Assembly (NCBI GenBank): GCA_005804965.1
Contig: SYOC01000095.1
Span: forward strand, 1-36,086
DNA length: 36,086 nt
Source of the DNA: Pseudomonadota bacterium
Lineage (GTDB): Bacteria; Desulfobacterota; Binatia; Bin18
Direction: 5' to 3'
In this document: positions 28 to 27,284 of the stretch, piece after piece
Layout of the letters: each line of letters starts with the position of its first letter
Position numbering within the stretch: the stretch's first letter is position 1
The notes under the pieces: model-generated
The model's input: the letters and a program-made list of their open reading frames with translations, nothing else
Database searches by the model: none
Told to the model about the DNA's origin: nothing
Made by a program: the position numbers and the translations under genes

Positions 28-498
28 CTATCGTTTCTTCCGAAAAAACTCTTGCAGCAACTGGCGGCTCGCGGCTTCAGCCACACCGGGCGTCACTTGT
101 ATGCGATGAGTCAAGCGCACGTCTTGCGACAAGTCGTACAGCGACCCGGCGGCTCCGAACTTGGCATCGTAACATCCAAAAACCACCCGCTGCACGCGCG
201 CATGCAACAGCGCCCCCATACACATAAGGCAGGGCTCGACCGTTACGTACACGGTAGCGTTAACAAGACGGTAATTGCCAAGATGTTGGGCGGCGGCACG
301 GAGGGCCTGTATTTCCGCATGCGCAGTGGGGTCGTGTAAACTGATTGGCTGGTTGCGTCCTCGTCCGATGACGATGCCATCGACGACCACCACCGCCCCC
401 ACCGGCACTTCTCCGGCGGCCTCAGCGTGAGCCGCTTGCAGTAGCGCCTCAGCCATCCACACGGCATCGTCGTGGTCTGTAGACGGAAGGGTGTTCAC
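28..498 (-). CDS. tadA: tRNA-specific adenosine-34 deaminase TadA
   Basis: The protein deaminates adenosine to inosine at the wobble position of tRNA-Arg(ACG) in the cytoplasm. It has 156 aa, a normal length for TadA. The zinc-dependent deaminase signature is complete: H60-A-E62 supplies a zinc ligand and the catalytic Glu, and P89-C90-x2-C93 supplies the other two ligands. The GTG start overlaps the TGA of the upstream metallo-beta-lactamase gene (GTGA), implying translational coupling. A generic cytidine/guanine deaminase is the alternative, but the VGAVVV...GRGRN N-terminal pattern and PCLMCMGA fit TadA well. Confidence 0.93.
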   Translation of the reverse strand: MNTLPSTDHDDAVWMAEALLQAAHAEAAGEVPVGAVVVVDGIVIGRGRNQPISLHDPTAHAEIQALRAAAQHLGNYRLVNATVYVTVEPCLMCMGALLHARVQRVVFGCYDAKFGAAGSLYDLSQDVRLTHRIQVTPGVAEAASRQLLQEFFRKKR

Positions 499-2060
499 TG
501 CGCAGAAGCCGCCACTGTCTGGCGTAGCTCAGCCAAGGTGGCGACCTTGTTGCCATGTCCACCAGCAATACGTTCAACCTGAAGGCCAAATTGCTGAATG
601 GTGTCGAGTAGATCACGGGGCCATCCTGGAGGTTGACGAGGTGCGCCGGGTGAAAACAGGTCGGTGACAAACAACAATTTTTCTGCCGGAAGATAGACAA
701 TCAGCATCCCGTCTGCGTGCCCGTTGCGCACGGGATAGACTTCAACCACGCGGCTGCCGTCGGAAAGCACTTTCTGCTGTTGTTCGACGGTTTCTAACTG
801 CAAAGGCTGAGGCGTTTTTTGCAAGCTGTCAGGCACCCGCGTATGCGGAGCCGCTGCCATTTTCTGAAAAAACTCCTCATCACTTTTCGGGACAACCAGC
901 ATCGCCCCAGCGGCGATATAGGCACGCACTCCGCCGCTATGATCGTTATGAAAATGCGTATTGACGAGGAAGCGTACCGGCTTACCGGGAAACTTTTGCG
1001 CCAACGCTGCTAAGACAGCTTGCGAGCGCTCTTCGTACAGAGGTGCATCCACGACAACGATATGGTCTGCCATTTCAATCGCTAAGCTGTGGTGGGTTCC
1101 ACCAACGACATGCACGACGCCTTTGCCGAGCTCGGTGAGCGTGACGCGGGTCTGCTCCTCATCCAGAGGGCTCGCCAAAGCAATGCGCCGCCACAGCCAA
1201 TGAGAACTGTAGCGTCCGCGCCGATCATCACTGTCGTCTACCTGCGCCAAATCTTCAGGCACGGTGAAATCGACGCCGCTGAGATCAACATCGTTCTCAA
1301 TCGTATCAATCTGCTCGGTCATCACCACACGGCCATTCACACGATAGGTCAGTTTAAATGGCAACTTGAGGGCACCGACTTGCCGCCAGTCCTCAAAGAA
1401 GAGTTCATTTTGCACGTCGCCAGAGATGGGATCGTCTTCGAGAAACTCGACCTTGGTGAGCAGCCGAGTCTGGTCATCAATCAAGAGAATCACCAAGAGT
1501 CCGCCATCGTCAAAAGAAATCGCATAATTGAGCTGACCACGGATCGATTGATCGGCGAGGCGGAACAGCGAACTCGACCGCACTAACGCATTCAGAAGTA
1601 TCGACACCGGCGAGCGGCTCAGCTCTTTGCGCCGCATGGCCATACGCGCTGCCGAGGCTGGGCGTTTCGCCGGACTGCGTGCCCCGTCAGTACCAATGAT
1701 CGCGCCAAAATCTCCATTGAGCAGCTCGGTGTATTTCCAGGTTAAGGCGAACGGATAGAGCGTCTCACGCTGCCATTCGTAGCGTAGTCGTCCACTAGAC
1801 ACGTCGCGCATCAGAGTACAAGAGAACGTCGATACCTTGCGCGGCTCAGCCCCTGGGCGAACGGTCTGTTCAGGTTCAAAGTTTTCTCCATGGGAAATAA
1901 TACGCTGGCTTTTCAGGGCTAAGAGCGCCTCACGCCCGCCTATCGCCATCAAAGCAGAATCAATATAGTGCCGCGCGGTCTGTGCGCGAGCCACAGAAGA
2001 CACGCTTAACAACAGAGCACAACTCAGAACGGGCGCAAGCAAAAATAAGGATCGTCTCAC
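495..2060 (-). CDS. Exported metallo-beta-lactamase-fold hydrolase with N-terminal LolA-like domain
   Basis: This 521-aa protein begins with a clear signal peptide (MRRSLFLLAPVLSCALLL...VARAQ), so it should act in the periplasm or outside the cell. Residues about 27-270 look like a beta-rich lipoprotein-carrier (LolA/LppX-like) domain, inferred from pattern only. Residues about 300-521 form a metallo-beta-lactamase domain with the zinc motif HFHNDHSGG, a later TDLFSPG segment and a terminal GGHG. The substrate cannot be told from sequence. The GTG start overlaps the TGA of the upstream peroxiredoxin-like gene and its own stop overlaps the tadA start, so the three are probably co-translated. 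Substrates of this type range from beta-lactams and lactones to thioesters. Confidence 0.8.
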   Translation of the reverse strand: MRRSLFLLAPVLSCALLLSVSSVARAQTARHYIDSALMAIGGREALLALKSQRIISHGENFEPEQTVRPGAEPRKVSTFSCTLMRDVSSGRLRYEWQRETLYPFALTWKYTELLNGDFGAIIGTDGARSPAKRPASAARMAMRRKELSRSPVSILLNALVRSSSLFRLADQSIRGQLNYAISFDDGGLLVILLIDDQTRLLTKVEFLEDDPISGDVQNELFFEDWRQVGALKLPFKLTYRVNGRVVMTEQIDTIENDVDLSGVDFTVPEDLAQVDDSDDRRGRYSSHWLWRRIALASPLDEEQTRVTLTELGKGVVHVVGGTHHSLAIEMADHIVVVDAPLYEERSQAVLAALAQKFPGKPVRFLVNTHFHNDHSGGVRAYIAAGAMLVVPKSDEEFFQKMAAAPHTRVPDSLQKTPQPLQLETVEQQQKVLSDGSRVVEVYPVRNGHADGMLIVYLPAEKLLFVTDLFSPGAPRQPPGWPRDLLDTIQQFGLQVERIAGGHGNKVATLAELRQTVAASAQ

Positions 2061-2653
2061 GGTAACCCCTTTAACGCTTCGAGAATGGCAGCATTGGTGG
2101 GTCGGATCTTAAAGTCCACCTCGACAAATTTCCAGCGCACGACACCTTGCTTGTCGATCACATACGTTGCGGGATGGGGCCATCCTTTGCTTTTGGGGTT
2201 TAACAGTCCGTAGCGGTTAATGACTTTGTGGTCCGGATCTTCAAGCAGCGGAAAATCGACCTTGCCGCCCCCCTCCTTTTCCAGCAGTGTAATCAAGCGG
2301 CGAGAATCCTCGTGTGGGTCGACGCTGACCGCCATGAGGTGGGTATTCTGGTGAGATTGTTCAGACAACAGCGATTTCAGCTCGACGAGCTGACTCACGC
2401 AAAAGGGTCACCAATGGCCACGATAGAAAACCAGGACGACATTCTTCTTGCCACGAAACTGGGAAAGCGAGACAACTTTTCCAGTTTCGTCTTCCAGCGA
2501 AAAATCTGGAGCAGTGGCACCAGCGTGAACACGTTCTAGATCTGTCGCTGCCAGCTCGTGGCCGTCCACTGGTCCAAGAGCCGACACGCTCGTGACAGAT
2601 AAGAGCGCTAGCAGAAAAACCATTGAAAAGAGCGTGCAATGTTGTCGAATCAT
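2057..2653 (-). CDS. Exported peroxiredoxin-like selenoprotein (UxxC), TGA-encoded Sec82
   Basis: Two open frames in the same phase are separated only by a TGA at 2408-2410, and joined they give one thioredoxin-fold AhpC/TSA-type protein of 198 aa. The context reads FYRGHW-TGA-PFCVSQL. Relatives have W-C-P-(F/Y)-C there, so the TGA replaces the catalytic Cys (residue 82) and C85 is its partner. Homology continues across the TGA (VDFPLLEDPDHKVINRYGLL then PATYVIDKQGVVRWKFV), which argues against a pseudogene. I chose the ATG at 2653 because GAGGGG lies 8 nt upstream and a signal peptide follows (MIRQHCTLFSMVFLLALL...SVSA). A periplasmic thiol peroxidase or disulfide reductase is likely. A hairpin typical of bacterial SECIS elements follows the TGA. 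The 3' end overlaps the next gene as GTGA. Confidence 0.85.
2371..2400 (-). promoter_or_regulatory. Bacterial SECIS element of the peroxiredoxin-like gene
   Basis: Starting 8 nt after the TGA, the mRNA can fold into a lower stem GCG/CGC, an internal loop, and an upper 7-bp stem TCAGCTC/GAGCTGA closed by the loop GTC. The loop begins 22 nt after the TGA with a G. Published bacterial SECIS rules (short stem, small loop with an early G, about 16-37 nt from the UGA) are met. SelB would be the binding partner. No folding energy was computed. Confidence 0.75.
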
Positions 2654-2959: not shown

Positions 2960-3574
2960 CTATGCCCCAAGCCCGATCTTCACTTCCTCGAAACTCTCAC
3001 GGTTTTTCAACCGTTCTGCCCATCGCCTCACACGCGGAAAATCTTCCAAGTTGAGGCCGATACGGTCGCATAAGGCAAGAAACGGCGTAAAGGCAATATC
3101 CGCCATACTATACTGCCCCATGAGATACTCCTGGGAGTGCAACTGCTGCTCCAAGCGTGGCAGTAGCGCATGCAGCTTCGCTTGATTGTGCGTGATCTTT
3201 TCCTGCACCCGCTCAGCAGCAGGTTTACGCTGCTCATAGAGGACGCCAATGATCGGAGGCACGAATTGGCTATTGCACCATTCCACCCACAAGCGCATCT
3301 GTGCTTTCGCTCCAGCCTCGGGCGGTACCAACGCGGTCTCTGGATATTTGTCTTCCAGGTATTCGTTGCACAATGCAGACTCGTACACCCATGCGCCCTC
3401 CTCCACCAACACAGGCACTTTGCCGTAGGGGTTGAGCGCGAGGTACCACTCTTGTTTCTGTTCTTTGTTGGGCAGATCGAGGACAATACGATCAAAAGGC
3501 AGGTTTTTCTCTTTGAGAACGATCCTCGTTCTCATGGCGAACGGTCATGGCAAATAGTCAAATAGCTTTCGCAT
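2960..3574 (-). CDS. Omega-like glutathione S-transferase selenoprotein, TGA-encoded Sec10
   Basis: The frame opens at ATG 3574, read as MRKLFDYLP-TGA-PFAMRTRIVLKEKNLPF, and continues to 2960 (204 aa with one TGA at 3545-3547, codon 10). AGGAGG (3580-3585) sits 5 nt before this ATG, whereas the internal ATG at 3535 has no such site and would remove the first strand of the thioredoxin fold. In omega-class and related GSTs the motif is CPFAxRxRLVL with a catalytic Cys, so the TGA replaces that Cys. The remaining protein is a normal GST: NPYGKVPVLVE (cis-Pro), ESALCNEYLEDKYP (glutathione gamma-Glu contact), then an all-helical C-terminal domain. Expected activity is thiol transfer, deglutathionylation or peroxidase in the cytoplasm. 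A 9-bp SECIS-like hairpin follows the TGA. Confidence 0.87.
3514..3534 (-). promoter_or_regulatory. Bacterial SECIS element of the GST gene
   Basis: Downstream of the TGA the mRNA has perfect 9-bp arms, TGAGAACGA and TCGTTCTCA, closed by the loop GGA. The loop starts 20 nt after the TGA with G, matching the bacterial SECIS consensus. A perfect 9-bp hairpin at the required distance inside coding sequence is unlikely by chance and independently supports recoding. Confidence 0.8.
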
Positions 3575-3579
3575 AACAG

Positions 3580-3585
3580 CCTCCT
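3580..3585 (-). promoter_or_regulatory. Shine-Dalgarno site that fixes the GST start
   Basis: AGGAGG lies 5 nt upstream of ATG 3574. It shows that translation begins before the in-frame TGA, so ribosomes must read through or decode that codon to make the GST. Confidence 0.8.
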
Positions 3586-3644: not shown

Positions 3645-4112
3645 CTAGATTTCGTACATCAACGCTGGCGCACGACGACGCTGACGCATCGGCTCCGCAC
3701 GACGGCACATCTCCACGAGCGTCATATGGTCGAGTGCCGCATCAAAAGCAGTGCCTACTTCAACCATCACTGAACGCAACCAACATTGCTCTAAGCTGAG
3801 ACAGTCAGCACACTTCACCGGCGCATCGCGGTTCGTACATGGCAGCGGATCAAGCGGACCATCAACAGCACGGACGATGTCACCGAGCGTCACCGCCGCT
3901 GGCGCACCGCGCAATGCATATCCCCCGGCTTTCCCGCGAACGCTCTGCACCAGCCCAGCCTTGTTGAGTGCGAGTAAGACTTGCTCCAAGAATTTCTTCG
4001 GAATGTTCTCCTGCTTGGCAATTTCCTGAATGGGCAGCATGGGCGGCGCATCAGGTGCCGCCAAACAGACCAAGGCCCGCACTGCGTACTCGCTCTTCTT
4101 TGACAATCGCAT
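3645..4112 (-). CDS. Rrf2-family transcriptional regulator
   Basis: This 155-aa winged-helix protein has the Rrf2 N-terminus (MRLSKKSEYAVRALVCLA), the recognition region PKKFLEQVLLALNKAGLVQSVRG and the wing GKAGGYAL. Four cysteines (C92, C101, C104, C110) lie in the loop where IscR, NsrR and RsrR hold an Fe-S cluster, so it could sense iron-sulfur status, oxidation or NO. CymR-type members instead control cysteine synthesis. It is divergent from the sulfite reductase/APS reductase operon and sits 70 nt upstream of the Sec-GST gene on the same strand, which suggests control of sulfur assimilation and thiol redox genes. The ligand is unknown. Confidence 0.88.
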   Translation of the reverse strand: MRLSKKSEYAVRALVCLAAPDAPPMLPIQEIAKQENIPKKFLEQVLLALNKAGLVQSVRGKAGGYALRGAPAAVTLGDIVRAVDGPLDPLPCTNRDAPVKCADCLSLEQCWLRSVMVEVGTAFDAALDHMTLVEMCRRAEPMRQRRRAPALMYEI

Positions 4113-4246: not shown

Positions 4247-6124
4247 ATGCAGGAAAACAAAGAGGGACAGGGAACTGTGCATCATCCAGTCTCGGTGCCA
4301 GGAGAGTCACAGCTTGCCAATGGCGACGAAGAGGCGACCGGCAAGCTCGGTTCGCTCGACAATCCGGAAGTCTATGTGAATCTGCCCGGGCAAGTGATTC
4401 CGATTCTGACGCGAGAGTTCGACGATTTCGACAACGAATCGCAAAAATTCTTGCGTGGCGAGAAGGACCCGATCTCATTCACGGGCTTTCGTCTCAAACA
4501 AGGCGTCTACGGCCAACGACAAGCGGACGTGCAGATGATTCGCGTCAAGCTGCCATTTGGTGGCGTCACGCCCAATCAATTCGACGCGCTTGCCGAGGTC
4601 GCAGAACACTATGCGCCGTTGGGCAAGGGGCATATCACGACACGACAGAACGTCCAGTTTCATCATATTCCGCTGCCAGATGCAGCTCAGGCCATTCGTC
4701 TCATCGGCGAGTCTGGACTTTCCTCGCGCGAGGCTTGCGGCAACACCGTTCGCAACGTTGTCAGCGATCCGTTTGCTGGTGTGTGCGAAGGCGAACCCTT
4801 CGACCCGACTCCCTACGTTGGCGCGTTCGTGCGTTATTTCGTGCGTAACGACCTGACCCAGCTCCTCCCCCGCAAATTCAAAGTCGCGTTCACTAGCACA
4901 GAGCAAGACGTCGCCGTCACTGGTATTCACGATCTGGGCCTTTTCCCTTGCCTCAAAGACGGCCAGAAAGGGTTTCGCATTACCACTGGCGGCGGTACCG
5001 CTATCCTCCCGCGTATCAGTTATCTCCTGTACGACTTCGTGCCCTTGAACGAATACCTCAAAGTTACAGAAGCCGTACTGCGCATCTTCAATCGCGCTGC
5101 CGAGCTACGAGTCAATCGCGCCCGAGCACGCATCAAGTTTCTTATTGATCGCATCGGCATCGACGCCTTTCGCCAGAGAGTGGACGAGGAAATGCGCGGC
5201 GAATGGGTCAACGAACGTAATTTCGATCCTGAACCCCTGAAGTTCATTGATAACGAAGAAGAACGCGCACCAGCCCAGCCCACCAATCCAGGAAGCCCCA
5301 ACGGCGACCAACGGGAATTTAGTGCTTGGGTCGCAGCCAACGTCCATCCGCAACGCCAACCCGGATTTTCCACCGCCGAGGTCAAAGTGACTCGTGGAGA
5401 TTTAAGCCCTGACCAATTCCGTGGGCTTGCGCAAATCATGCGCGACTTCAGTGGTGGTAACGCCCGCACCACGGATGAACAGAATCTCTTGCTGCGCTGG
5501 GTGCGGCAAGAAAGTCTGTACGACGTATGGCGACGCCTGAAGGAGCTGGGCCTTGGCGATGCTGGCGCACGCCAAATCACCGACGTCGTGAGTTGCCCGG
5601 GGACCGATAGCTGCAAGCTTGCCATCACCAACTCCATGGGCTTAGCTCGTGCCGTACAAGAGCGCGTGGAACAACTTCAGATCGAAGATCCACTCACAAA
5701 GAAAATCCACATCAAAATGAGTGGATGTCCGAATGGTTGCAGCCGTCACCACATCGCCAACATTGGTTTCTACGGCGCAGCCATGAAATTCGACGGCCAC
5801 CAAGTGCCAGGCTACATCGTCATGTTGGGCGGTAACTACGACGATGGCCAGCCACGCATTGCCGAACGCTTAGATGTCCGGGTCCCGGCCAAGCGTATTC
5901 CCGATGCCGTCGAGCGGTTTATCCGTCTGTATCAGGAGCGCCGTCAGGAGGGAGAAGACTTTAACGCCTGTCTCGACCGTGTTGGCGTTGAAGCCTTCGA
6001 GGCCGCCATCAAAGATCTTTCGGTTCCTGTCAAATTCGACGACGAGCATAAGCACGAGTTCATTGATTGGAATCGCCCAGGTCTCTATAAACTTGAGCGC
6101 GGAGAAGGTGAGTGCGCCGTCTAA
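4247..6124 (+). CDS. Siroheme-dependent sulfite (or nitrite) reductase
   Basis: This 625-aa enzyme belongs to the assimilatory nitrite/sulfite reductase family, which performs a six-electron reduction at a coupled siroheme/4Fe-4S centre. The cluster signature is complete: C450-x5-C456 (SCPGTDSCKLA) and C494-x3-C498 (SGCPNGCSRHH). Two duplicated ferredoxin-like halves are visible (first around GHITTRQNVQFHHIPL, second around RGLAQIMRDFSGGNARTTDEQN). The next gene is an APS reductase, so sulfite to sulfide is the more likely reaction; nitrite cannot be excluded from sequence. There is no fused flavoprotein domain, so electrons probably come from ferredoxin. The start is supported by GAGGT 6 nt upstream. 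Confidence 0.9.
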   Translation: MQENKEGQGTVHHPVSVPGESQLANGDEEATGKLGSLDNPEVYVNLPGQVIPILTREFDDFDNESQKFLRGEKDPISFTGFRLKQGVYGQRQADVQMIRVKLPFGGVTPNQFDALAEVAEHYAPLGKGHITTRQNVQFHHIPLPDAAQAIRLIGESGLSSREACGNTVRNVVSDPFAGVCEGEPFDPTPYVGAFVRYFVRNDLTQLLPRKFKVAFTSTEQDVAVTGIHDLGLFPCLKDGQKGFRITTGGGTAILPRISYLLYDFVPLNEYLKVTEAVLRIFNRAAELRVNRARARIKFLIDRIGIDAFRQRVDEEMRGEWVNERNFDPEPLKFIDNEEERAPAQPTNPGSPNGDQREFSAWVAANVHPQRQPGFSTAEVKVTRGDLSPDQFRGLAQIMRDFSGGNARTTDEQNLLLRWVRQESLYDVWRRLKELGLGDAGARQITDVVSCPGTDSCKLAITNSMGLARAVQERVEQLQIEDPLTKKIHIKMSGCPNGCSRHHIANIGFYGAAMKFDGHQVPGYIVMLGGNYDDGQPRIAERLDVRVPAKRIPDAVERFIRLYQERRQEGEDFNACLDRVGVEAFEAAIKDLSVPVKFDDEHKHEFIDWNRPGLYKLERGEGECAV

Positions 6125-6169: not shown

Positions 6170-6958
6170 ATGAGAGCACATATCGACGTGAACGAACGCG
6201 ACATTGGGAAACTTGCTCTGGAATACGAAGATCGCCCGCCCCAGGATGTCCTACGTTGGATGGTGGAACGGTTCGGCTCGCAGGCCGCCATTTGCACGAG
6301 CTTTCAAGCCGATGGCATGGCAATTCTCGACATGGCATGGCGCATAGACCCTTCGATACGGGTTTTCACCATCGACACCGGGCGTCTGCCACAGGAAACC
6401 TACGCGTTGCTCGATCAAGTACGCGAGAAGTACGACATCGCCATCGAAACCTACTTCCCTGAAACAATGCAAGTAGAAAACCTCGTGCGTCAGCATGGCG
6501 TGAATCTTTTCTATCGCGATTCGCAACTCCGCTTGCTGTGCTGCCAAGCTCGGAAAGTCCAGCCGCTCAAGCGCGTCTTATCAACCCTTGATGCCTGGGT
6601 CACAGGCTTACGACGCGAGCAATCCTCCACGCGCGCCACTGTCCAGAAGATCGAGATTGATCAAGAGCATGGTGGATTGATTAAGGTCAACCCTCTGGCC
6701 AACTGGACCGAGCAGCAAGTGTGGGATTACATTCGCGAACACGACGTGCCGTATCACTCGTACTACGATCAAGGCTACACCAGCATCGGCTGTGCCCCCT
6801 GCACGCGCCCGACAGCACCGGGAGAAGATCCACGTGCTGGGCGCTGGTGGTGGGAAATTGGCGTCGATAAAGAATGCGGCATGCACTGCACGATTGAAAG
6901 CGGGCGCTTCGTGCGCGAATTTGAAGCTGAACTCAATCGCAACGGCGGCGGCATTTAG
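6170..6958 (+). CDS. cysH: Adenylyl-sulfate (APS) reductase CysH, 4Fe-4S type
   Basis: This 262-aa cytosolic enzyme reduces activated sulfate to sulfite using thioredoxin or glutathione. The PP-loop fold is seen in TSFQADGMAILDMAW and the following FTIDTGRLPQETY. The cluster ligands C124-C125 and C208-x2-C211 are present, so this is the Fe-S-containing APS type rather than the cluster-free PAPS enzyme. The catalytic Cys is C236 in ECGMHC, where relatives usually have ECGLH. It follows the sulfite reductase gene by 45 nt, forming a two-step sulfate-to-sulfide operon; the cysteine synthase gene is at 16578. Confidence 0.93.
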   Translation: MRAHIDVNERDIGKLALEYEDRPPQDVLRWMVERFGSQAAICTSFQADGMAILDMAWRIDPSIRVFTIDTGRLPQETYALLDQVREKYDIAIETYFPETMQVENLVRQHGVNLFYRDSQLRLLCCQARKVQPLKRVLSTLDAWVTGLRREQSSTRATVQKIEIDQEHGGLIKVNPLANWTEQQVWDYIREHDVPYHSYYDQGYTSIGCAPCTRPTAPGEDPRAGRWWWEIGVDKECGMHCTIESGRFVREFEAELNRNGGGI

Positions 6959-18155: not shown

Positions 18156-21100
18156 CTACCGCACCGCCGTTGTCTGCGATGGTAAGCAAAGATCCTCGTT
18201 CCTCGTCGTATCCACCAATTCAGGCAGGAACTCAGTGTTCACATGAATCTCTTTCACTTGCTGATGCTTGGGTTGGAGGGCACAGAAGTTCGTTTCTCTC
18301 CGACGCCCGCCACAGTCTGACTCTTTCTTACAGACCCCGCCAGCATTCGCCGGAGCCTCGGCTGTGCATAGCCCCCTTACCTGACGTACTTGGTAGCACA
18401 TGAGGTCCTGAGTTGAGTTTTTCACACCCTGCTCGTTGAGATCAACTGGCGTACACAGGCGTGTGGGTCGTTTAACTTCATACACGCGAGGCTGCTCGAA
18501 CTGATCCACCACCGACACGAAGAGGTTCTTGGGGAACTTCCGTGTCTTCGGCGTCACGCGCACTCGTGCGCATTCGTAGCGATCCACGTTGTTCGCACCC
18601 GGCTGCCCTATCGGCTCGGTCAGGTCTTTTGCTGTGGGCACCAGGACACGATCAATCTTGATTGCATCCACTGTGAGCGGTTGCTGGTCATCCTGCAACA
18701 CATTGGTGATCTTGAGCCGAGACTGCTTAGGCGGCTTCGGCTGCGTCGCGCAAAGATTGGTCACTTTGCGTATCCCGCCGCAGTCCTCTTCCTTTCGACA
18801 CCCTTGCCCGGCGTTCTGTGGTGCATCTACGGCACACTTACCTTTGGTCAGGCGAATCTGGAAAGCCCGCAGATGCGTATCAGGGTCGTTTATCGTATCG
18901 TCATCGACTTCCGCCGGATTACACACATTCACCGGCTTACGCAGATCGAAAATGCGTTCCTCGGTCGGCGAGAAACGATCCACGACAGAGATCCGCAACC
19001 CGCGCGGGAACCGTTGCGGTACGCAGTAATCGGTCTCTTCGCTGTCGTCATCGCCTTCATCAATCCCACCACAATCAGCCTCCAACTCACATGTCCCGCC
19101 AGCATTCATAGGAGCGTCTTCAGCGCAGATGTCCCCGCGACTAGAGCGCGTGCGATAACACATAAAATTGTCCAACGCCGCTGTGCCATCAGATGTTTGC
19201 GCGACGGCAATGGAAATGTCAGTAATCGCACCATTGGTCAGCGAGGTCACTTTCACCTGCACGTCTCCGCGCCCATCTGCCGTGAGCACGGTCTTCAATA
19301 CCAGTGCTCCAGTCGCAACTCCCGGCAGCCGGAAGGTATCAATCTTTTGCGTCGGTTGGCCATTGAGACCGTCTAGCGCCGCAGTGATCGGACCAGTTGT
19401 CCCTGTGATTTCAGCTGTGTAGGCATCTTCTTGGTTGCCTAGGTTATGGACCAGCAAGAGGAACGTGCTTGCGCCAGGGGTCGGTAACATCGCGGTCTCG
19501 GGGTTAAACTCGGCGACCATGTTCTGCGTACTGACAATCACGACCTGAGCGGTGTCGCTATCCTGAACACTCGAGTTCGCCTGCGAGGTTGCTGTCCCGA
19601 TCAGGAGCAAATTGCCGGGGAAAGCAACGTTGATCGCGCCCACTGTGATATTAACCGTTTGCGAGGCTCCTGGGGCCAAAGTCACGGAGCTTGCCTCAAG
19701 CGTAGACACCACGCCGACCGGACCAGCCAGCGCCAAATCGAACGTATCTTGGCTCTGACCAGTATTGGTCACAGTCATCTGGAACAGGTTGCCGGGACCA
19801 CCGGACGAAGGCGTCAGATCAACCTGGACTCCCTGGCTCACAACATTGACCATGCCAGCGGCATCGTCCTGCACGTTGTCGCCTTGCGTAGACACAAGAT
19901 CGACCGAGAAAGGATAACTCCCGGGAGTTGTCCCTGGCGGTGGGGTGATACGCAACTCAACATCGCGAAAGTTGCCTAACCCAGGCGGCACAGTCACGGT
20001 TTGGCTCGCGAATGCCCCCGCGAAGCCAGCCGGGAATGTCCCCGACAACGCATAGGTGTCGGTAGCATCGCCGACGTTCGTGATCCGGACAGCGTACACA
20101 GCTGGCGTGCCCTGCCCTGCGGTATTTTGTGGCGGCACCAACGTAACATCAACGGCTAACGCTCCCAGCGTCACAGGATCGCCGCTGCCGGCTGGAATGC
20201 TGGCAATGTCGAGCACCCCACCGACGGCATCTGCGACACCCGAGAGTGATTGCGCCCTGACAGTGAAGCCCACTTCTCCAGTAAGGCTGTCGAGTGGCGT
20301 GTCAATCACCAAGGTGAGCATGCGTATCTCCCCAGCACCCAACGTCACCGTGCTTGGGAAGACCACATCGCCTGCCGGGACACCGTCCACGGTCAGCGTA
20401 AACGTCTCGGTCGCACCGAGAAGGTTTTCCAGCGTGACAGTGAAGGTTGCACTCTCTCCGGCTTGCAGAGTGCGTTTCGCTGGATCGATAGCCAAAATAT
20501 GCCGAGCACTGACAAACAGCTCCGGCAACTCGACCATACCATTCCCAGCCACGCTCGAAAAATTGACCGTCGTGCCGTTACTGATCCGCCGCACTTCACC
20601 GGGCTGCATCCCTTGGAGTTGCGCCGCGAAGCTAAACGTCTGGCCCGCACTGCCTACGAGAGCATCCCAGTGGAACGTGGTCTGCCCGCCACTATTTTGT
20701 TGCGAACTCAGCGCGGGAGAAAAAGAGTTATTGACCGGGAGCACCTGTGTGCCAGTAGGTACGCGGTGGTCAATGCCAACAGTCAATGAAGAGAGGTTCT
20801 CGAAGATCGTGGGCAGGGCAATCTCAACCCACGTCGTCGAGGCCAAGCGCCGTGCAAGCCCCGGCGGCTGTTGCCACGAGCCTTCGCTTAATTGTGTGAC
20901 CAACAAAAATTCCGCCCCGGCGATCACCGCTGGATCGACGCTGTTTTGCGCCGTCAGCAGCAACGCCTCCAGCGCCTGTGCAGTCGGCAATGCGCGTGAT
21001 CGATTCCCGTCCGCTGGGACATCGTTCCAACTGCCGTCAGCATTTTGCGCGACCCGGAGAAACGCCTCAGCCTCTGCGATGCGGCTCTGCGCCGCCGTTG

Positions 21101-24100
21101 CCGCAGAGCCAGTCAAGAATGGCAAGGCAGCATGCAGACCGATGATGGTCTGTGCTGCCGTCCTGATATTGCGGGTGTAAGCCCACGATGCAGCGGAGAG
21201 CGCGCCAGCGGCGTTCTGCAACGCCGCGCGATACAAAGGCATGCGATCCGCAGTGAAAAGGACGACCTGAAGTTCATCAACAGGAGTAAAATTGCTGGTC
21301 AGGCTTGGCGTCGCATCGGTAGTAAACTCCACTTTCAATTTCTTGATTTGATGATTCGGATACGTCTGCGTGAGACGAAGATGGTCAAGCGTCGTCGGAC
21401 TCGCGAACGTCCACACCGCTTGCGCAGGAATAGTGCGTGAATCCCGAGGAAAATATGCCCAGCCGTCGGCATTATTATTCTTGATTCCATTGAAGGACTC
21501 CACCACTGGATAGCCATCCTGCTCAAAGTTTGCCACCGCGCTCGCGATCATCTGCTGGGTTGTCCCGTCAAAGGCTTCGAGTTCGCTCAGGACAAAGTTA
21601 CCGTTGCCGGCAAAGGTATCGCTGATCGAAATACGTACGCCGGTAACATTCGCGACCGGGGTAAAGGTGAAGTCGAATGCGTCGCCGAAGTTCCGTGGGA
21701 AGGTGAGTTCATTGCCAATCACTGCTACGGAAGGGGAAGAATAGGGGACAAAGGTCTTTCCCTCAATGAAGGACAGGGTCTTGGCCAACGCCTCGATATT
21801 GCCGGCCGTATGCGTCGCACTCGGCGTCCCATCGAAGTACAACCGATCCTCGCCATGGTCTGCGTTCCACCCACCATCCACCTGTTGCCTCGTCAACAGA
21901 AAGTCTAACGCCCTCAGTAGAGTCGCACCCAGACGGTCCAACTGCGCCCCGGTGAAGCGGGACATGGCCCAAGCGGCCAGAGAGGTCTGCGTCGTCCAGA
22001 ACCCGTTGAACGACGAGGTTGATCCATCCGTATTCTGCCAACTATTGTACGCGTCAACGAACCGATCCATGAGTTTCTGATCGACGGGTAACTCGGGCAG
22101 TTTCTGGCGCGACACCTCTAGTCCATACGATCCTTGCGTCTGCACGTGACAGCCGAAGCAATTGTAGTCCGCCGTCGAGAGCCATTGTTGCCAACCCGCC
22201 ACTTCGGACTGTTCCCACAGCACGCTGCGGATCATCGCGTCGCGCACCCGTACCGGCAAGGAATCATTCGGCCCAGACAGTTGGCGGATCTCGACCACCT
22301 CCGTGCCGCGATTGTCGCTTGGCGCAACATCATGAATCCAGAAAGACACCTTCGTATGAAACGGGAGATACAGCTTGAACGACTTCCCAAAGGCTGCCGT
22401 CTCGGCTTCACTCGACGTCGCATAGAGACTGAGCGTGTCGTGGACGTAACCTAGTTGATACGCCTTGGGCACCAGCGGCAGGGTCACATTCACCTTAAAG
22501 CCCCAAGTCTTACCGTTATTGTCGCTGTCGTTAGGATGGAACGACACCGCCCCACTCACATGCTTGATCTCATAGATGCCAGCATTGAGTTCAACGATTG
22601 GTCCCACGGCGGGGTTATTGTTCGCCGAGTGGGTGGCTCCATCCAATGTTACGGTCTGGGTCGGCACCGGACTCGCTCCACCCTCGTCGCCAATCGCCAG
22701 AATTTCGTCGGTCAAATAAAAGAAGCTACCATCGAAACTATCGAAGGTGCCGGTAATTTTGATGTAGCGCATGGAGGTGGGCGGAAAGATCAAACGCTGA
22801 ATGCCGCTATACTCGCCAGTCGTGCGGTCGACCAACGTACTAAACAGGCTCCCATCCAGCGACGACTCCACGCGGTAGCGTGTGACTCGCGCATCGCCAT
22901 CCCAGATATGCAATTCCAGCGCATCAATGGATCGGACATTGCCAAGATCGAGGAGGAAAAAGCCGTTATTATTGCGTCCGGTCCCGACGTAGTGTTCCGT
23001 ACCGCTTCGCACTTCATTGATGAGATTACTCACCGGAACGTTCGCGTTGAGTAGGCCGCTGGTCGAGATGCTCGCTCCACGGCTGGCCGCTGCCCAGTTG
23101 ATCCGATCCTGACTCGGATCGGTTGGCTCTAAGCCGACGGAACCACCACTGCCGGCAGCAAACCGAGGCTCAACGGTGATCGCGCTTGTGACAGTGCTGG
23201 TGCCAGGTGGCACCAGCATCGGATCGGCGGAGGCACTCGCCTTGATCGGCGTCGCCACCGGCAAGGACCCAGTGCCTTGCCCACCGGGAATCAGATTATC
23301 GTTGAGGTTGAGCAATTGCACTTCGACGGAGTAAAAATCTTCCGGCCAACCAGAGGCAATGATTTGATCCAAGTCAAAGGTGATCGTCGAGCTATTGACT
23401 GGAATACTAATGAGCGTGGGAGCCGGGCTTTCATATTGCACCTCTCCGGTCGAGCGTTTGATCGTGACCAGCGCCTTCGCGGCGAGCGGAATGTTGACGG
23501 TGTTTGCCACCGTCGCCCGGATGCGCGTGGTACCGTTTTGCAAGATGAACGGCGGACTGCCCACAACCGACATGACGTTCACTGCCGCTGTAATCGCGGT
23601 CAGCACCCCCGAGGCTTCAGGCGACGAGGCCGCGCCGGTCACGGAAGCAATGGCACGGAAGGGGAAATGCCCAGCGTCCGCTGGCGTCAGGCTGATGGGC
23701 ACGATTTGCATGTCCCCGGCACCCACCACAAACGACCCACCAGGAACCGCGCTTTGCACGCTCCCTGGGAGACCTGCGAGCGAGAGTGAGACCGTTGCCG
23801 GAGTGCTGCCATGGTTTTTCACCAGGATGTCCGCACCAACAGTCACGCCGGGCTCGGTCACTGGTGCATTCGGTGCCAAGGCAATGACCACACCTTGCAG
23901 CGTCGTTCCCGAGGCCTGCGCAAGATCAGAAGCAAGCGCGGCCATCAGCGGGGCCATTCCCGCAACGTTGCAACTTGCGGCGAGCGCTTGCAGGTCCTGC
24001 AACTGCGTCTGAAAGATCGCCAGCAATGGATCGGCTTGGACGACTAACGCGAGATTATCCAACCGGAACTGGACTTGTTGGCAGAGCATCGCATTACCCG

Positions 24101-27100
24101 GGTCGGATTGCAGTTGCGCAAAAACATCGCCCAGAGCAGCAAGCGCTTCGGTGAGCGAAACGTTACCTTTATCGGCAGCCACCTGGGTCGCAGCATCGAC
24201 CGCAGCCGCTTCCTGCGAACGGATGTCGAGGAGAATGTTGGTTGTACGCTCGTTGGGTTCAGGCGCACCGATGATCTCGCCAGAGATGACAAGATCGAGC
24301 GTCTGATTCAATGCCACATTGCCAGCAACAATCAGCGACAGCAAAATCTCCCGTGTTTCGCCTGGAGCCAAAGACACGCTCGCAGGAAGACCATGTACGG
24401 TCACACCGCTGGGAGTCACAGCTTGCAGCGCCACCGTCATGGGCATGTTACCGCCAGCTGCTAACGTGAGTGTCGTTTCCACTGTGTCACCGGGGCTTGC
24501 ACTCAGTTGCTGCGGAGCACTCGCGAGGACCACGTCCTGAATCGTTGGCGTCGTCACTTGATCGTTGTCGGTGGCTTGTACGGTACTGTTCGACGTACTC
24601 TCGACGGCGAGGGCAAAGGGCACAACAGTGTCAGGCGGGTCGAGCACACCACCCGTGGGTTGCAAGCAAATGCCGACCTCTGCCATATGACCGGCAGGAA
24701 TCGTGACACTGCTCAGACTGCTACGCGCCGTGAACCCAGGAGGAATGCCGGTGAAATTAAGGGCAAAAGTATCAGTCGCCGGACCGGTGTTGCGGATTTG
24801 GGCGAGAAAAACGGAAGGTAACTGGGCATTGCCAACAGTAACAGTAAACAGCGCGTCGGGAATCAGTTGGACGGACACGCCGGGTTGTGTTCCCGGCGCA
24901 ATCGGTGCCGGCCCTGGAGCCAAATCTGTGGACAAGAAAGGATAGACCGGCGGGTCGCCGGGGAAATTCCGCGCGATCCAGATGAGACCAATCCCCATGC
25001 CGACCACGACCCCGCCTTTATACGCAGTTTCAAGTTCCGAGGTTACGCCCGAACCTATCGCTCCGAGTCCAAGGACGGTCTTGGCGATGTCTTTCAGGCA
25101 TTTCGCGATACCAACAAACTCCCCGCTTTGCGCATCCAGCGTGCCCTGGAAACAACCCCAGGCTTTTTTACCAGCATCCATAAGCTGCAACGGCCCAACT
25201 TTGATACCCATTGCCGCATCAAGCGCCTTGGGAAGGATATCTGCGGCAATTTTCTCTTTGGCTTTCTTAATGATCTCTTCGAGCGTACCGCCGGTAACAA
25301 TGTTGGCAATAAATTCACCGGTGAAGCTAATCATCGTGCTCGTCCAGCCGTGCATCGTACCGATGAACGCCGCCATGCTGGCATTGAGCGGACTATTTAG
25401 CGTGAGGCTCAGGATATTGGCGTATTCCGTGATGGCACCATGAGCACCGTCTTCCATCACACTGGTCGTGCGCCCGGTTCGCCAGTCGGTTTCCAACCAG
25501 CCAATCGTCGGGGATCCATTGATGGGCACCATCTGGGTCGGAGTCACGACCGATTTCCCAGCGTTCAGCGCGAGAGCGATCCTTGCCTTGGCCTCGGCAG
25601 AGAGCGGCAGGGTAGCGAGATCGTGTACGGTGTCTGGGGCGAGCACGGTGACTGGAAACTCTCCGGCAGCTTCCTTGAAGATGTCGGTAACGGCTATTGT
25701 CGGTTGGCCAGTGACCGCGTTGACAATCTCGCCCTCTAGCGCACCTTCCATCAGGCCGCGCATGACCTCGAAAAACAACGCGACGCTTGCAGCCTGCCCG
25801 GGAAACGGCAAGGTGCGCATATCGCTTTTGCGCAAATCGAGTAGGGATCGCAAGGAAGAACCGTTGCGCTTCATCTGTGAAAGCACAAGCCGAGGAGAAG
25901 CATAATAGGCTTTGGTGAGATACCCCTTTTGTAGTTGACCGAGCAGACGATCCGAGGCGAGGGCAAACATCGACCCGTTGGTTTCGTTGAGGGTGAGGGC
26001 TAATTCCTTCTCTAAGGCCACGGCTTGCGCCAACACCGTGCGCTGCGCATCGGTTTGCGGACCGGACGGGGGAATGTTCGCGACGAGGGGCTGCAAGACG
26101 GTGAGTGCGTCGCGCTTAGCTGTAGCGCGATCAAGCTGCGGCTGGACAGCAAACGGTGAGAACGCGCCCGGCAGCACTGTAATCGTGACGAGATCCAATT
26201 CGCTAAGGCTAGATTCTCCTGGCGTCACGACACTGCCACTCCCGGCTCCGCTATTTTGCCGTGCAGCGAATCCAACACGGTCCATCAACGCGCGCTCGAA
26301 AGTTTGGCTCTGCCCGTCTGGACTGACCACGTCGATATAGAGAAATACACCAGTGACAATTTGACTGAATCCGCCGAAGTTCGAGAAGAACTCCTGGTAG
26401 TCCGTGCCCCGGATCAGCGGATCGTCACTCAGATCGGTGTCGCCCTGCCCAAGGAGGAGATAAGGAGAGTATGTATGCGTGGTGCTGCTAAACACCACAG
26501 CTCCGACCACACTCGAATTGACAAAATGTCCAACGGACAGCGGCTTGCCGACTAACTCGACGGCATTCAACGTCTGATGGAGCGGTGTCTGCACATCAGG
26601 AGGCAGACCAAGCTGACTGGTGAAACTTCCGGCCAACTCGGCTTGCAGGCGCACAACGACCTTGTGCCGTAAATTGTCGGCGACTTCTGAGAACGTGTCT
26701 TGTAAAGAAGCGAAGGTCTGCCCCAGCGTCGCCCCCGGAAAACTGGAGTCGGCATTAGTATTCCCGGCTCCGAATTGCACCCAGTAATGTTCTTTCGTTT
26801 CCGCGAGCAAGGCGGAGTCGCCGACCGGATCGGCAAGCAGCGTTCCCGGTTCCAAACAGCCCACAGCTCGCAACGGCGCGGGAAACATCGACTGGATCAA
26901 CGTTTGCGCGTCAGCGTCGGCCAAGGTGCCGTGGACATAGTGGGCTGGGATATTGGACGCCCGTAGTAAGGCGATCATTAAGCTGGCTTTATCCAACGCG
27001 TTCCCAGCTTTACTCCACAAGGTCCCGCGCGCACCGCGCAGCGAGCCTTTATAAGACTCGTAGGCTATCTGGTCACGCACGAAAGCGAAAATCTGCGCGG

Positions 27101-27284
27101 GATCGTGGTTCAACGCAGCGGCCTGCTGCATGACATACGGGTCAGCGCTATTGGCGTCAGGTGTTGGAGCCAAGTCGGCAACTTGGCCATACGCGAGTCG
27201 CAGGCTCCCGAAAAGCGCCATATGGCAAAGGAGAAGGAAGGTAACAAAGCAACGGAACCGTGCCGTGGATGCAGAGTGGTCCAT
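18156..27284 (-). CDS. 3042-aa exported mosaic surface protein
   Basis: A signal peptide (CFVTFLLLCHMALFGSLRLAYGQ) leads into these regions. About 40-330: transglutaminase-like fold (QIAYESYKGSLRGARGTLWSKAGNALDKAS, ALLRASNIPAHYV) in which the catalytic Cys position is Ala. About 810-1330: NEW3/CARDB-like beta-sandwiches (FTGIPPGF, SLAPGETREI). About 1395-1530: discoidin-like domain (FLLDLGNVRSIDALELHIWDG). 1709-1713: CFGCH, a possible haem c site. About 1780-2150: helical DGGWN/DGSWN repeats of prenyltransferase/squalene-cyclase type, interrupted at about 1868-1990 by a second discoidin-like segment. About 2265-2690: more NEW3-like sandwiches. About 2705-3042: four Cys-rich modules with three CxxDAPxNAGGxC inserts. 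A surface or cell-envelope role is inferred; the response-regulator gene ends 39 nt upstream. Confidence 0.8.
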   Translation of the reverse strand: MDHSASTARFRCFVTFLLLCHMALFGSLRLAYGQVADLAPTPDANSADPYVMQQAAALNHDPAQIFAFVRDQIAYESYKGSLRGARGTLWSKAGNALDKASLMIALLRASNIPAHYVHGTLADADAQTLIQSMFPAPLRAVGCLEPGTLLADPVGDSALLAETKEHYWVQFGAGNTNADSSFPGATLGQTFASLQDTFSEVADNLRHKVVVRLQAELAGSFTSQLGLPPDVQTPLHQTLNAVELVGKPLSVGHFVNSSVVGAVVFSSTTHTYSPYLLLGQGDTDLSDDPLIRGTDYQEFFSNFGGFSQIVTGVFLYIDVVSPDGQSQTFERALMDRVGFAARQNSGAGSGSVVTPGESSLSELDLVTITVLPGAFSPFAVQPQLDRATAKRDALTVLQPLVANIPPSGPQTDAQRTVLAQAVALEKELALTLNETNGSMFALASDRLLGQLQKGYLTKAYYASPRLVLSQMKRNGSSLRSLLDLRKSDMRTLPFPGQAASVALFFEVMRGLMEGALEGEIVNAVTGQPTIAVTDIFKEAAGEFPVTVLAPDTVHDLATLPLSAEAKARIALALNAGKSVVTPTQMVPINGSPTIGWLETDWRTGRTTSVMEDGAHGAITEYANILSLTLNSPLNASMAAFIGTMHGWTSTMISFTGEFIANIVTGGTLEEIIKKAKEKIAADILPKALDAAMGIKVGPLQLMDAGKKAWGCFQGTLDAQSGEFVGIAKCLKDIAKTVLGLGAIGSGVTSELETAYKGGVVVGMGIGLIWIARNFPGDPPVYPFLSTDLAPGPAPIAPGTQPGVSVQLIPDALFTVTVGNAQLPSVFLAQIRNTGPATDTFALNFTGIPPGFTARSSLSSVTIPAGHMAEVGICLQPTGGVLDPPDTVVPFALAVESTSNSTVQATDNDQVTTPTIQDVVLASAPQQLSASPGDTVETTLTLAAGGNMPMTVALQAVTPSGVTVHGLPASVSLAPGETREILLSLIVAGNVALNQTLDLVISGEIIGAPEPNERTTNILLDIRSQEAAAVDAATQVAADKGNVSLTEALAALGDVFAQLQSDPGNAMLCQQVQFRLDNLALVVQADPLLAIFQTQLQDLQALAASCNVAGMAPLMAALASDLAQASGTTLQGVVIALAPNAPVTEPGVTVGADILVKNHGSTPATVSLSLAGLPGSVQSAVPGGSFVVGAGDMQIVPISLTPADAGHFPFRAIASVTGAASSPEASGVLTAITAAVNVMSVVGSPPFILQNGTTRIRATVANTVNIPLAAKALVTIKRSTGEVQYESPAPTLISIPVNSSTITFDLDQIIASGWPEDFYSVEVQLLNLNDNLIPGGQGTGSLPVATPIKASASADPMLVPPGTSTVTSAITVEPRFAAGSGGSVGLEPTDPSQDRINWAAASRGASISTSGLLNANVPVSNLINEVRSGTEHYVGTGRNNNGFFLLDLGNVRSIDALELHIWDGDARVTRYRVESSLDGSLFSTLVDRTTGEYSGIQRLIFPPTSMRYIKITGTFDSFDGSFFYLTDEILAIGDEGGASPVPTQTVTLDGATHSANNNPAVGPIVELNAGIYEIKHVSGAVSFHPNDSDNNGKTWGFKVNVTLPLVPKAYQLGYVHDTLSLYATSSEAETAAFGKSFKLYLPFHTKVSFWIHDVAPSDNRGTEVVEIRQLSGPNDSLPVRVRDAMIRSVLWEQSEVAGWQQWLSTADYNCFGCHVQTQGSYGLEVSRQKLPELPVDQKLMDRFVDAYNSWQNTDGSTSSFNGFWTTQTSLAAWAMSRFTGAQLDRLGATLLRALDFLLTRQQVDGGWNADHGEDRLYFDGTPSATHTAGNIEALAKTLSFIEGKTFVPYSSPSVAVIGNELTFPRNFGDAFDFTFTPVANVTGVRISISDTFAGNGNFVLSELEAFDGTTQQMIASAVANFEQDGYPVVESFNGIKNNNADGWAYFPRDSRTIPAQAVWTFASPTTLDHLRLTQTYPNHQIKKLKVEFTTDATPSLTSNFTPVDELQVVLFTADRMPLYRAALQNAAGALSAASWAYTRNIRTAAQTIIGLHAALPFLTGSAATAAQSRIAEAEAFLRVAQNADGSWNDVPADGNRSRALPTAQALEALLLTAQNSVDPAVIAGAEFLLVTQLSEGSWQQPPGLARRLASTTWVEIALPTIFENLSSLTVGIDHRVPTGTQVLPVNNSFSPALSSQQNSGGQTTFHWDALVGSAGQTFSFAAQLQGMQPGEVRRISNGTTVNFSSVAGNGMVELPELFVSARHILAIDPAKRTLQAGESATFTVTLENLLGATETFTLTVDGVPAGDVVFPSTVTLGAGEIRMLTLVIDTPLDSLTGEVGFTVRAQSLSGVADAVGGVLDIASIPAGSGDPVTLGALAVDVTLVPPQNTAGQGTPAVYAVRITNVGDATDTYALSGTFPAGFAGAFASQTVTVPPGLGNFRDVELRITPPPGTTPGSYPFSVDLVSTQGDNVQDDAAGMVNVVSQGVQVDLTPSSGGPGNLFQMTVTNTGQSQDTFDLALAGPVGVVSTLEASSVTLAPGASQTVNITVGAINVAFPGNLLLIGTATSQANSSVQDSDTAQVVIVSTQNMVAEFNPETAMLPTPGASTFLLLVHNLGNQEDAYTAEITGTTGPITAALDGLNGQPTQKIDTFRLPGVATGALVLKTVLTADGRGDVQVKVTSLTNGAITDISIAVAQTSDGTAALDNFMCYRTRSSRGDICAEDAPMNAGGTCELEADCGGIDEGDDDSEETDYCVPQRFPRGLRISVVDRFSPTEERIFDLRKPVNVCNPAEVDDDTINDPDTHLRAFQIRLTKGKCAVDAPQNAGQGCRKEEDCGGIRKVTNLCATQPKPPKQSRLKITNVLQDDQQPLTVDAIKIDRVLVPTAKDLTEPIGQPGANNVDRYECARVRVTPKTRKFPKNLFVSVVDQFEQPRVYEVKRPTRLCTPVDLNEQGVKNSTQDLMCYQVRQVRGLCTAEAPANAGGVCKKESDCGGRRRETNFCALQPKHQQVKEIHVNTEFLPELVDTTRNEDLCLPSQTTAVR

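What the first reader, a model, noticed from the sequence alone, without database searches (positions are those of the whole stretch)
2960..3574. Omega-like GST with selenocysteine in place of the catalytic Cys
An AGGAGG-led ATG at 3574 opens a frame reading MRKLFDYLP-TGA-PFAMRTRIVL. Omega-class GSTs have FCPFAxRTRLVL with the catalytic Cys exactly where the TGA is. A perfect 9-bp hairpin with loop GGA starts in the right place after the TGA (loop 20 nt downstream). Start site, homology across the TGA and SECIS-like structure agree. Standard gene callers will start at M14 and remove the active site. Sec-containing GSTs are, as I recall, reported only in a few metagenomic selenoproteome surveys.
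Basis: partly seen in the sequence, partly recalled or inferred. Interest (0 to 1): 0.9.

Follow-up and report, generated by a model that had tools for sequence, protein, structure and literature searches.

The report
Selenocysteine-containing glutathione S-transferase in uncultured bacteria
A glutathione-handling enzyme gene carries an in-frame UGA "stop" codon exactly at its active site, and relatives in 54 of 148 genomes of the same bacterial class keep that UGA and an RNA hairpin behind it, so the enzyme almost certainly uses the rare amino acid selenocysteine instead of cysteine; selenocysteine GSTs were already known from ocean surveys, but this shows a conserved lineage of them in assembled genomes.

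Summary
Window 3574-2960 (-) encodes a 204-aa glutathione S-transferase with in-frame TGA at codon 10, an AGGAGG start signal, and a 9-bp hairpin (loop GGA) 20 nt after the TGA. The genome has tRNA-Sec(UCA) beside SelA, and SelB beside a SelD that itself carries an in-frame TGA. Fifteen of 16 genomes of the family keep the gene (65-91% identity), all with TGA at that codon. A DNA pattern for U-P-[FY]-A-x-x-T-R-x-x-L matches 54 of 148 genomes of the class; the same pattern with a Cys codon matches none. The hairpin covaries (29 double changes, shuffled mean 9.9), and codon choice in it departs sharply from the rest of the gene. AlphaFold gives a GST fold (pLDDT 94.8) with Sec10 capping helix 1. 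"Omega-like" is only partly supported. Sec-GSTs are not new as a kind: they were predicted in 2005 (4 Sargasso Sea sequences) and 2008 (12 GOS sequences). What is added is a genome-resolved, apparently Sec-only lineage of three clades, plus a second selenoprotein (peroxiredoxin-like, FYRGHWUPFC) just downstream. Enzyme activity is inferred, not shown.

The parts
2960..3574 (-). Sec-GST coding sequence, 204 aa with Sec at codon 10
   Evidence: Pfam GST_N_2 2.9e-21, GST_C 2.2e-9, both above the curated cut-off; orthologues with TGA in 15 of 16 family genomes
3545..3547 (-). TGA read as selenocysteine, at the catalytic Cys position of Cys-type GSTs
   Evidence: Aligned with the Cys of CPF in SspA and thiol-dependent reductase 1 and with Cys in non-Sec paralogues of the class; N-cap of helix 1 in the model
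3514..3534 (-). bacterial SECIS hairpin, 9 bp, loop GGA, loop 20 nt after the TGA
3580..3585 (-). Shine-Dalgarno AGGAGG, 5 nt before ATG 3574
   Evidence: GGAGG/AGGAG conserved before the long start in all clade-1 genes
3645..4112 (-). Rrf2-family transcription regulator (closest named equivalogs CymR and IscR, below cut-off), upstream neighbour
   Evidence: found next to the Sec-GST in 6 of 8 family loci examined
495..2060 (-). metallo-beta-lactamase-fold protein, conserved downstream neighbour
4247..6124 (+). sulfite/nitrite reductase, divergent neighbour
6170..6958 (+). adenylylsulfate reductase (CysH type)
   Evidence: TIGR02055 above cut-off
2057..2653 (-). second selenoprotein gene: AhpC/TSA peroxiredoxin-like protein with a hydrophobic N-terminus, Sec at TGA 2410-2408 (FYRGHWUPFC)

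Best explanation
The gene encodes a selenoprotein GST. SelB carrying Sec-tRNA(Sec) binds the hairpin just behind UGA-10 and inserts selenocysteine where Cys-type GSTs hold their catalytic Cys, at the N-terminus of helix 1 of the thioredoxin-like domain (inferred from conserved sequence, RNA structure and machinery; not measured). The selenolate most likely attacks oxidised or glutathionylated substrates and is resolved by glutathione through a selenenyl-sulfide, making the protein a glutathione-dependent reductase or peroxidase (glutaredoxin, dehydroascorbate reductase or GPx type) rather than a conjugating transferase. In this family it probably belongs to a sulfur/oxidative-stress region under an Rrf2 regulator (inferred from synteny). 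My confidence is 0.95 that it is a Sec-GST and about 0.55 in the reductase/peroxidase role; the number below is for the Sec-GST identity.
For: tRNA-Sec(UCA) 67.9 bits next to SelA; SelB 389 bits on the same contig as SelD, 387 bits, with its own in-frame TGA. tRNA-Sec, SelB and SelD are each found in most of the 28 genomes tested. TGA orthologues in 15 of 16 family genomes. Class scan: TGA motif in 54 of 148 genomes, Cys motif in 0 of 148. SECIS on 34 distinct sequences: 98.2% of cells paired, 29 double-change cells vs shuffled 9.9 +/- 2.1, slid controls 0-4. Codon-preserving shuffles: mean hairpin energy -10.1 vs -3.5 kcal/mol in clade 1. Arg codons within 8 codons of the TGA are AGR in 27 of 28 cases vs 4 of 146 in the rest of the gene in clade 1, and 78 of 78 vs 78 of 488 in clade 2. 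AlphaFold pLDDT 94.8, Foldseek GST matches at TM 0.8-0.9. Glutathione synthesis genes present. Semisynthetic seleno-GSTs have high GPx activity (PMC9944854).
Against: No protein evidence; the genomes are assemblies of uncultured or unnamed organisms. One family genome (G005, 100% complete) has the Sec machinery but no Sec-GST. Coding sequence for TRIVL predisposes to this hairpin: one Cys paralogue (L038) also folds at -8.4 kcal/mol. In clade 2 a few sequences lose one pair, and codon-preserving support is weaker (median p 0.018, maximum 0.20). Substrate unknown; the sulfur-gene neighbourhood is seen only in this family, not around clades 2 and 3.
Confidence: 0.94

Rival explanations
1. The real gene starts at M14 and the TGA is an ordinary upstream stop; the N-terminus is not translated.
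For: This is what a standard ORF caller gives.
Against: The frame before the TGA is under protein selection (RKLFDYL invariant in 15 genomes with many synonymous changes); the AGGAGG lies before ATG 3574 and none before M14; a start at M14 would drop strand 1 and the first turn of helix 1 including the active-site residue.
Confidence: 0.03
2. The TGA marks a pseudogene or a sequencing/assembly error.
For: The window genome is a fragmented assembly (440 contigs, 84.7% complete).
Against: The same TGA is in independent assemblies of 15 family genomes, two of them single-contig, and 54 genomes of the class; purifying selection on both sides.
Confidence: 0.01
3. UGA is read through as another amino acid (for instance Trp) without the Sec machinery.
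For: None specific.
Against: Other genes in the window use TGA as terminator, for example the Prx gene ends in TGA; aligned homologues have Cys here, and Sec is the known Cys partner; the covarying hairpin matches the bSECIS model.
Confidence: 0.02
4. It is a Sec-GST, but acts as a conjugating transferase, lyase or ligand-binding/regulatory GST (SspA-like) instead of a reductase. (This rival concerns the role only and is compatible with Sec insertion.)
For: SspA is the best solved-structure sequence match; GSTs vary widely in function.
Against: Cys-type GSTs mostly do thiol-exchange chemistry (established knowledge), and Sec is normally kept for redox or nucleophilic catalysis; a non-catalytic role would not explain strict Sec retention.
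Confidence: 0.35

Closest known systems
Sec-containing glutathione S-transferase (GST)-like selenoproteins of the Sargasso Sea and GOS surveys (PMC1088965; PMC2398784; listed in PMC9312934 and PMC13188914)
   Same: GST family (COG0625 / PF13409) with a predicted Sec; bacterial SECIS downstream.
   Different: Those were 4 and 12 sequences from marine metagenomes with Cys homologues widespread. Here the gene is in assembled genomes of one bacterial class, no Cys version of the motif is seen in 148 genomes of the class, and synteny can be read. I could not compare sequences with their representatives (PPR62222.1, MEK9676863.1).
Omega-class GST (human GSTO1) and related Cys-GSTs (DHAR, thiol-dependent reductase 1, SspA)
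   Same: CPFAxRTRxVL-type motif, catalytic residue at the start of helix 1, GST N and C domains.
   Different: Sec instead of Cys; no omega N-terminal extension (query residue 5 aligns with chain residue 27 of GSTO1); closest solved sequence is SspA, not GSTO1; Foldseek favours phi, nu and SspA entries.
Semisynthetic seleno-GSTs (PMC9944854)
   Same: Selenium placed in a GST active site; gives glutathione peroxidase activity.
   Different: Chemical conversion of active-site Ser, not genetically encoded Sec at the Cys position.

Membership tests
Bacterial selenoprotein | In-frame UGA aligned with Cys in homologues | tested here: met
[quoted passage not shown]
   Loop GGA, 9 bp, 19 nt between the UGA and the loop, -12.8 kcal/mol; covariation
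Bacterial selenoprotein | SelA, SelB, SelD and tRNA-Sec in the genome | tested here: met
   (SelA recognised from its sequence next to tRNA-Sec, not by a family model)
Bacterial selenoprotein | Selenium in the protein (75Se or mass spectrometry) | not testable with these tools
   No experiment possible
Glutathione S-transferase superfamily | GST N- and C-domain models above curated cut-off, GST fold | tested here: met
Omega-class GST | Catalytic Cys (here Sec) in a [CU]PFAxRTR motif | tested here: met
Omega-class GST | N-terminal extension and best match to omega members | tested here: not met
   No extension; SspA and TDR1 score above GSTO1; Foldseek top entries are phi/nu/SspA
GST-like selenoprotein of marine surveys | Direct sequence similarity to the deposited Sec-GST sequences | not tested
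Maleylacetoacetate isomerase (zeta GST) | TIGR01262 above cut-off | tested here: not met
   80.7 bits against a cut-off of 171

The most novel reading that the evidence does not exclude
A Sec-obligate GST family: three clades in one bacterial class that exist only as selenoproteins, with Sec gained at least twice (clades 1+2 with the hairpin loop at +20, clade 3 at +33), working as genetically encoded glutathione peroxidases/reductases; in the window's family they form a selenium-dependent branch of a sulfur-assimilation regulon with a neighbouring Sec-peroxiredoxin.
Probability: 0.3. Interest if true: 0.62.

Novelty: new member of a known kind. Interest (0 to 1): 0.45.

Why it matters
Sec-GSTs were known only as a handful of metagenomic sequences with no function assigned. 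A conserved lineage in assembled genomes, apparently without close Cys counterparts in its class, gives genes, synteny and clean Sec/Cys comparisons, so the question of what selenium buys a GST becomes directly testable. Standard ORF calling starts these genes at M14, removing the active site, so such genes are probably often misannotated. The codon and covariation pattern is also a clear case of an RNA signal overriding codon choice inside a coding region.

Tried and rejected
First AlphaFold job on the 15 clade-1 sequences alone was poor (pLDDT 59); repeated with 46 homologues. An early tblastn for the neighbouring peroxiredoxin used an out-of-frame query; redone in frame, showing it only in the sister genome among the 14 loci. 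Two translations of that sister gene were likewise out of frame and are not used. Rfam scan of the window: nothing. A scan of all TGA-joined frames in the window gave no further convincing selenoprotein besides the GST and the peroxiredoxin. Considered and rejected: pseudogene, assembly error, start at M14, UGA as Trp. The Cys-motif scan uses an exact pattern, so 0 of 148 means no close Cys version, not that no Cys relative exists; more distant Cys and Ser paralogues do. Other phyla were not searched for Cys versions. The organism's class could not be named; relatives carry the NCBI label 'Deltaproteobacteria bacterium', and none of my reasoning depends on it.

Full report
WHAT IS THERE. On the minus strand, AGGAGG (3585-3580) precedes ATG 3574 by 5 nt; the frame runs MRKLFDYLP-TGA-PFAMRTRIVL... 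to a TAG at 2962-2960, 204 residues if the TGA at 3547-3545 is read. A standard ORF starts at M14, 2960-3535. The read-through protein passes Pfam's cut-offs for GST N- and C-terminal domains. In sequence searches of solved structures it matches SspA, thiol-dependent reductase 1, LigF and GSTO1, with position 10 on the Cys of CPF in SspA and the reductase.

MACHINERY. The genome (4.66 Mb, 440 contigs, 84.7% complete) has one tRNA-Sec above Rfam's cut-off, anticodon UCA, directly beside a 493-aa SelA. SelB (389 bits) and SelD (387 bits) lie together on another contig, and the SelD gene carries an in-frame TGA, as known for Sec-SelD. Of 28 genomes tested, tRNA-Sec is above cut-off in 25, SelB in 25 and SelD in 24; a few of the weaker tRNA-Sec matches could be other class II tRNAs.

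CONSERVATION OF THE TGA. Searching 58 related genomes with the protein, the best hit in 15 of the 16 genomes of the family is an orthologue (65-91% identical to the window's copy), every one with exactly one TGA, at the same codon. Two of these genomes are single contigs. The residues before the TGA are invariant in protein (RKLFDYL) while their codons vary: 369 synonymous against 24 non-synonymous pairwise codon differences over codons -8 to -1. So the frame upstream of the TGA is translated.

CLASS-WIDE SCAN. A degenerate DNA pattern for U-P-[FY]-A-x-x-T-R-x-x-L found 62 sites in 54 of 148 genomes of the class, with 0 hits for the reversed pattern. The same pattern with a Cys codon in place of TGA found 0 of 148. 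A phylum-wide sample of 395 genomes accepting TGA, TGC or TGT found only four class members already known. The sites fall in three clades: clade 1 (UPFAMRTR, this family), clade 2 (UPYAHRTR, three other families, often two and once three copies per genome) and clade 3 (UP[FY]ARKTR, one further family). In a maximum-likelihood tree with non-Sec paralogues each clade is well supported; clades 1 and 2 are sisters (97/91) and clade 3 is placed apart, though the program warns that long branches meet at the clade 1+2 join.

THE SECIS. Nearly all members fold with a 3-nt loop, GGA (GGC where the Ile codon is Leu), behind the TGA; a few clade-2 members lose the pairs next to the loop. In clades 1 and 2 the loop starts 20 nt after the TGA; in clade 3 it starts 33 nt after it. 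Both satisfy the published bacterial SECIS model (quoted in PMC13188914). On an ungapped alignment of 34 distinct clade 1+2 sequences, 98.2% of cells are paired, 29 cells change on both sides (shuffled 9.9 +/- 2.1; slid partners 0-4) and the covariation score is 0.315 (shuffled 0.137). Synonymous-codon shuffles that keep the protein fold far worse: -3.5 vs -10.1 kcal/mol in clade 1, -4.7 vs -10.4 in clade 2, -5.0 vs -10.0 in clade 3. Arg codons within 8 codons of the TGA are AGR in 27 of 28 cases in clade 1 against 4 of 146 elsewhere in the genes, and 78 of 78 against 78 of 488 in clade 2. A caution: the coding of TRIVL leans towards this hairpin, and one Cys paralogue (L038) folds similarly by chance.

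STRUCTURE. AlphaFold with 46 homologues gives pLDDT 94.8 and pTM 0.90: beta-strand 3-6, then residue 10 immediately before helix 11-22, the standard catalytic position. Foldseek returns phi, nu, SspA and Ure2-type GSTs at TM 0.8-0.9. The protein is a Cys-type GST with an omega-like motif, not a clear omega GST: it lacks the omega N-terminal extension and other classes match as well or better.

NEIGHBOURHOOD. In the window's family the order sulfite/nitrite reductase (often with APS reductase) / Rrf2 regulator / Sec-GST / metallo-beta-lactamase-fold protein / tadA-type deaminase is largely kept. It is not kept around clades 2 and 3. Glutathione synthetase is present in 9 of 10 genomes checked, this one included, and a GCS2-type glutamate-cysteine ligase in all 10, so glutathione should be available.

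MECHANISM. Shown: conserved UGA, conserved and covarying SECIS, complete machinery, GST fold with the Sec at the catalytic site. Inferred: Sec insertion in vivo; selenolate attack and glutathione resolution; a reductase or peroxidase role, by analogy with Cys-GSTs (omega, DHAR; established knowledge) and with semisynthetic seleno-GSTs that gain high GPx activity (PMC9944854); link to sulfur or oxidative stress from synteny.

WHAT IS KNOWN. Sec-containing GST was one of the new families of the Sargasso Sea survey (4 sequences, PMC1088965) and was found 12 times in GOS with 1,036 Cys homologues (PMC2398784). Reviews of 2022 and 2026 still list one representative, and the later one says such families remain largely uncharacterised. 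I could not align with those representatives. So the kind is known; the additions are the genome-resolved, apparently Sec-only conservation, the three clades with two SECIS placements, and the context.

VERDICT.

Noticed in passing
window 2057-2653 (-), TGA at 2410-2408: A second selenoprotein gene: AhpC/TSA peroxiredoxin-like protein with FYRGHWUPFC and an N-terminal hydrophobic segment, SECIS-like hairpin UCAGCUC-GUC-GAGCUGA with 21 nt between TGA and loop. The gene is 83% identical with the same TGA in the sister genome. The motif FYRGxWUP[FY]C occurs in 47 of 143 genomes of the class.
   Followed up: partly
L045, L046, L078, L079, L081, L082, L084 (clade 3): Sec-GSTs whose SECIS hairpin sits 13 nt further downstream than in clades 1 and 2 but keeps a GGA loop; suggests an independent gain of Sec or relocation of the SECIS.
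   Followed up: partly
G029, G050, G132, G133, G135, G138, G146 (clade 2): Two, in G138 three, Sec-GST paralogues per genome, an unusual multiplication of a selenoprotein gene.
   Followed up: no
G000:C439:342-1268 (L061): SelD with an in-frame TGA next to SelB; the g3 genomes of the same family instead have a SelD match without stop inside a longer frame of about 760 residues, possibly the NADH-dehydrogenase fusion described in PMC2398784.
   Followed up: no
L057, L060: The nearest non-Sec paralogue in this family has Ser at the Sec position and Cys three residues later (SPYCQKVR).
   Followed up: no
window 18156-27284 (-): A 3042-aa open frame with transglutaminase-like, F5/8 type C and FixG-C-like domains, probably a giant surface or secreted protein.
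   Followed up: no
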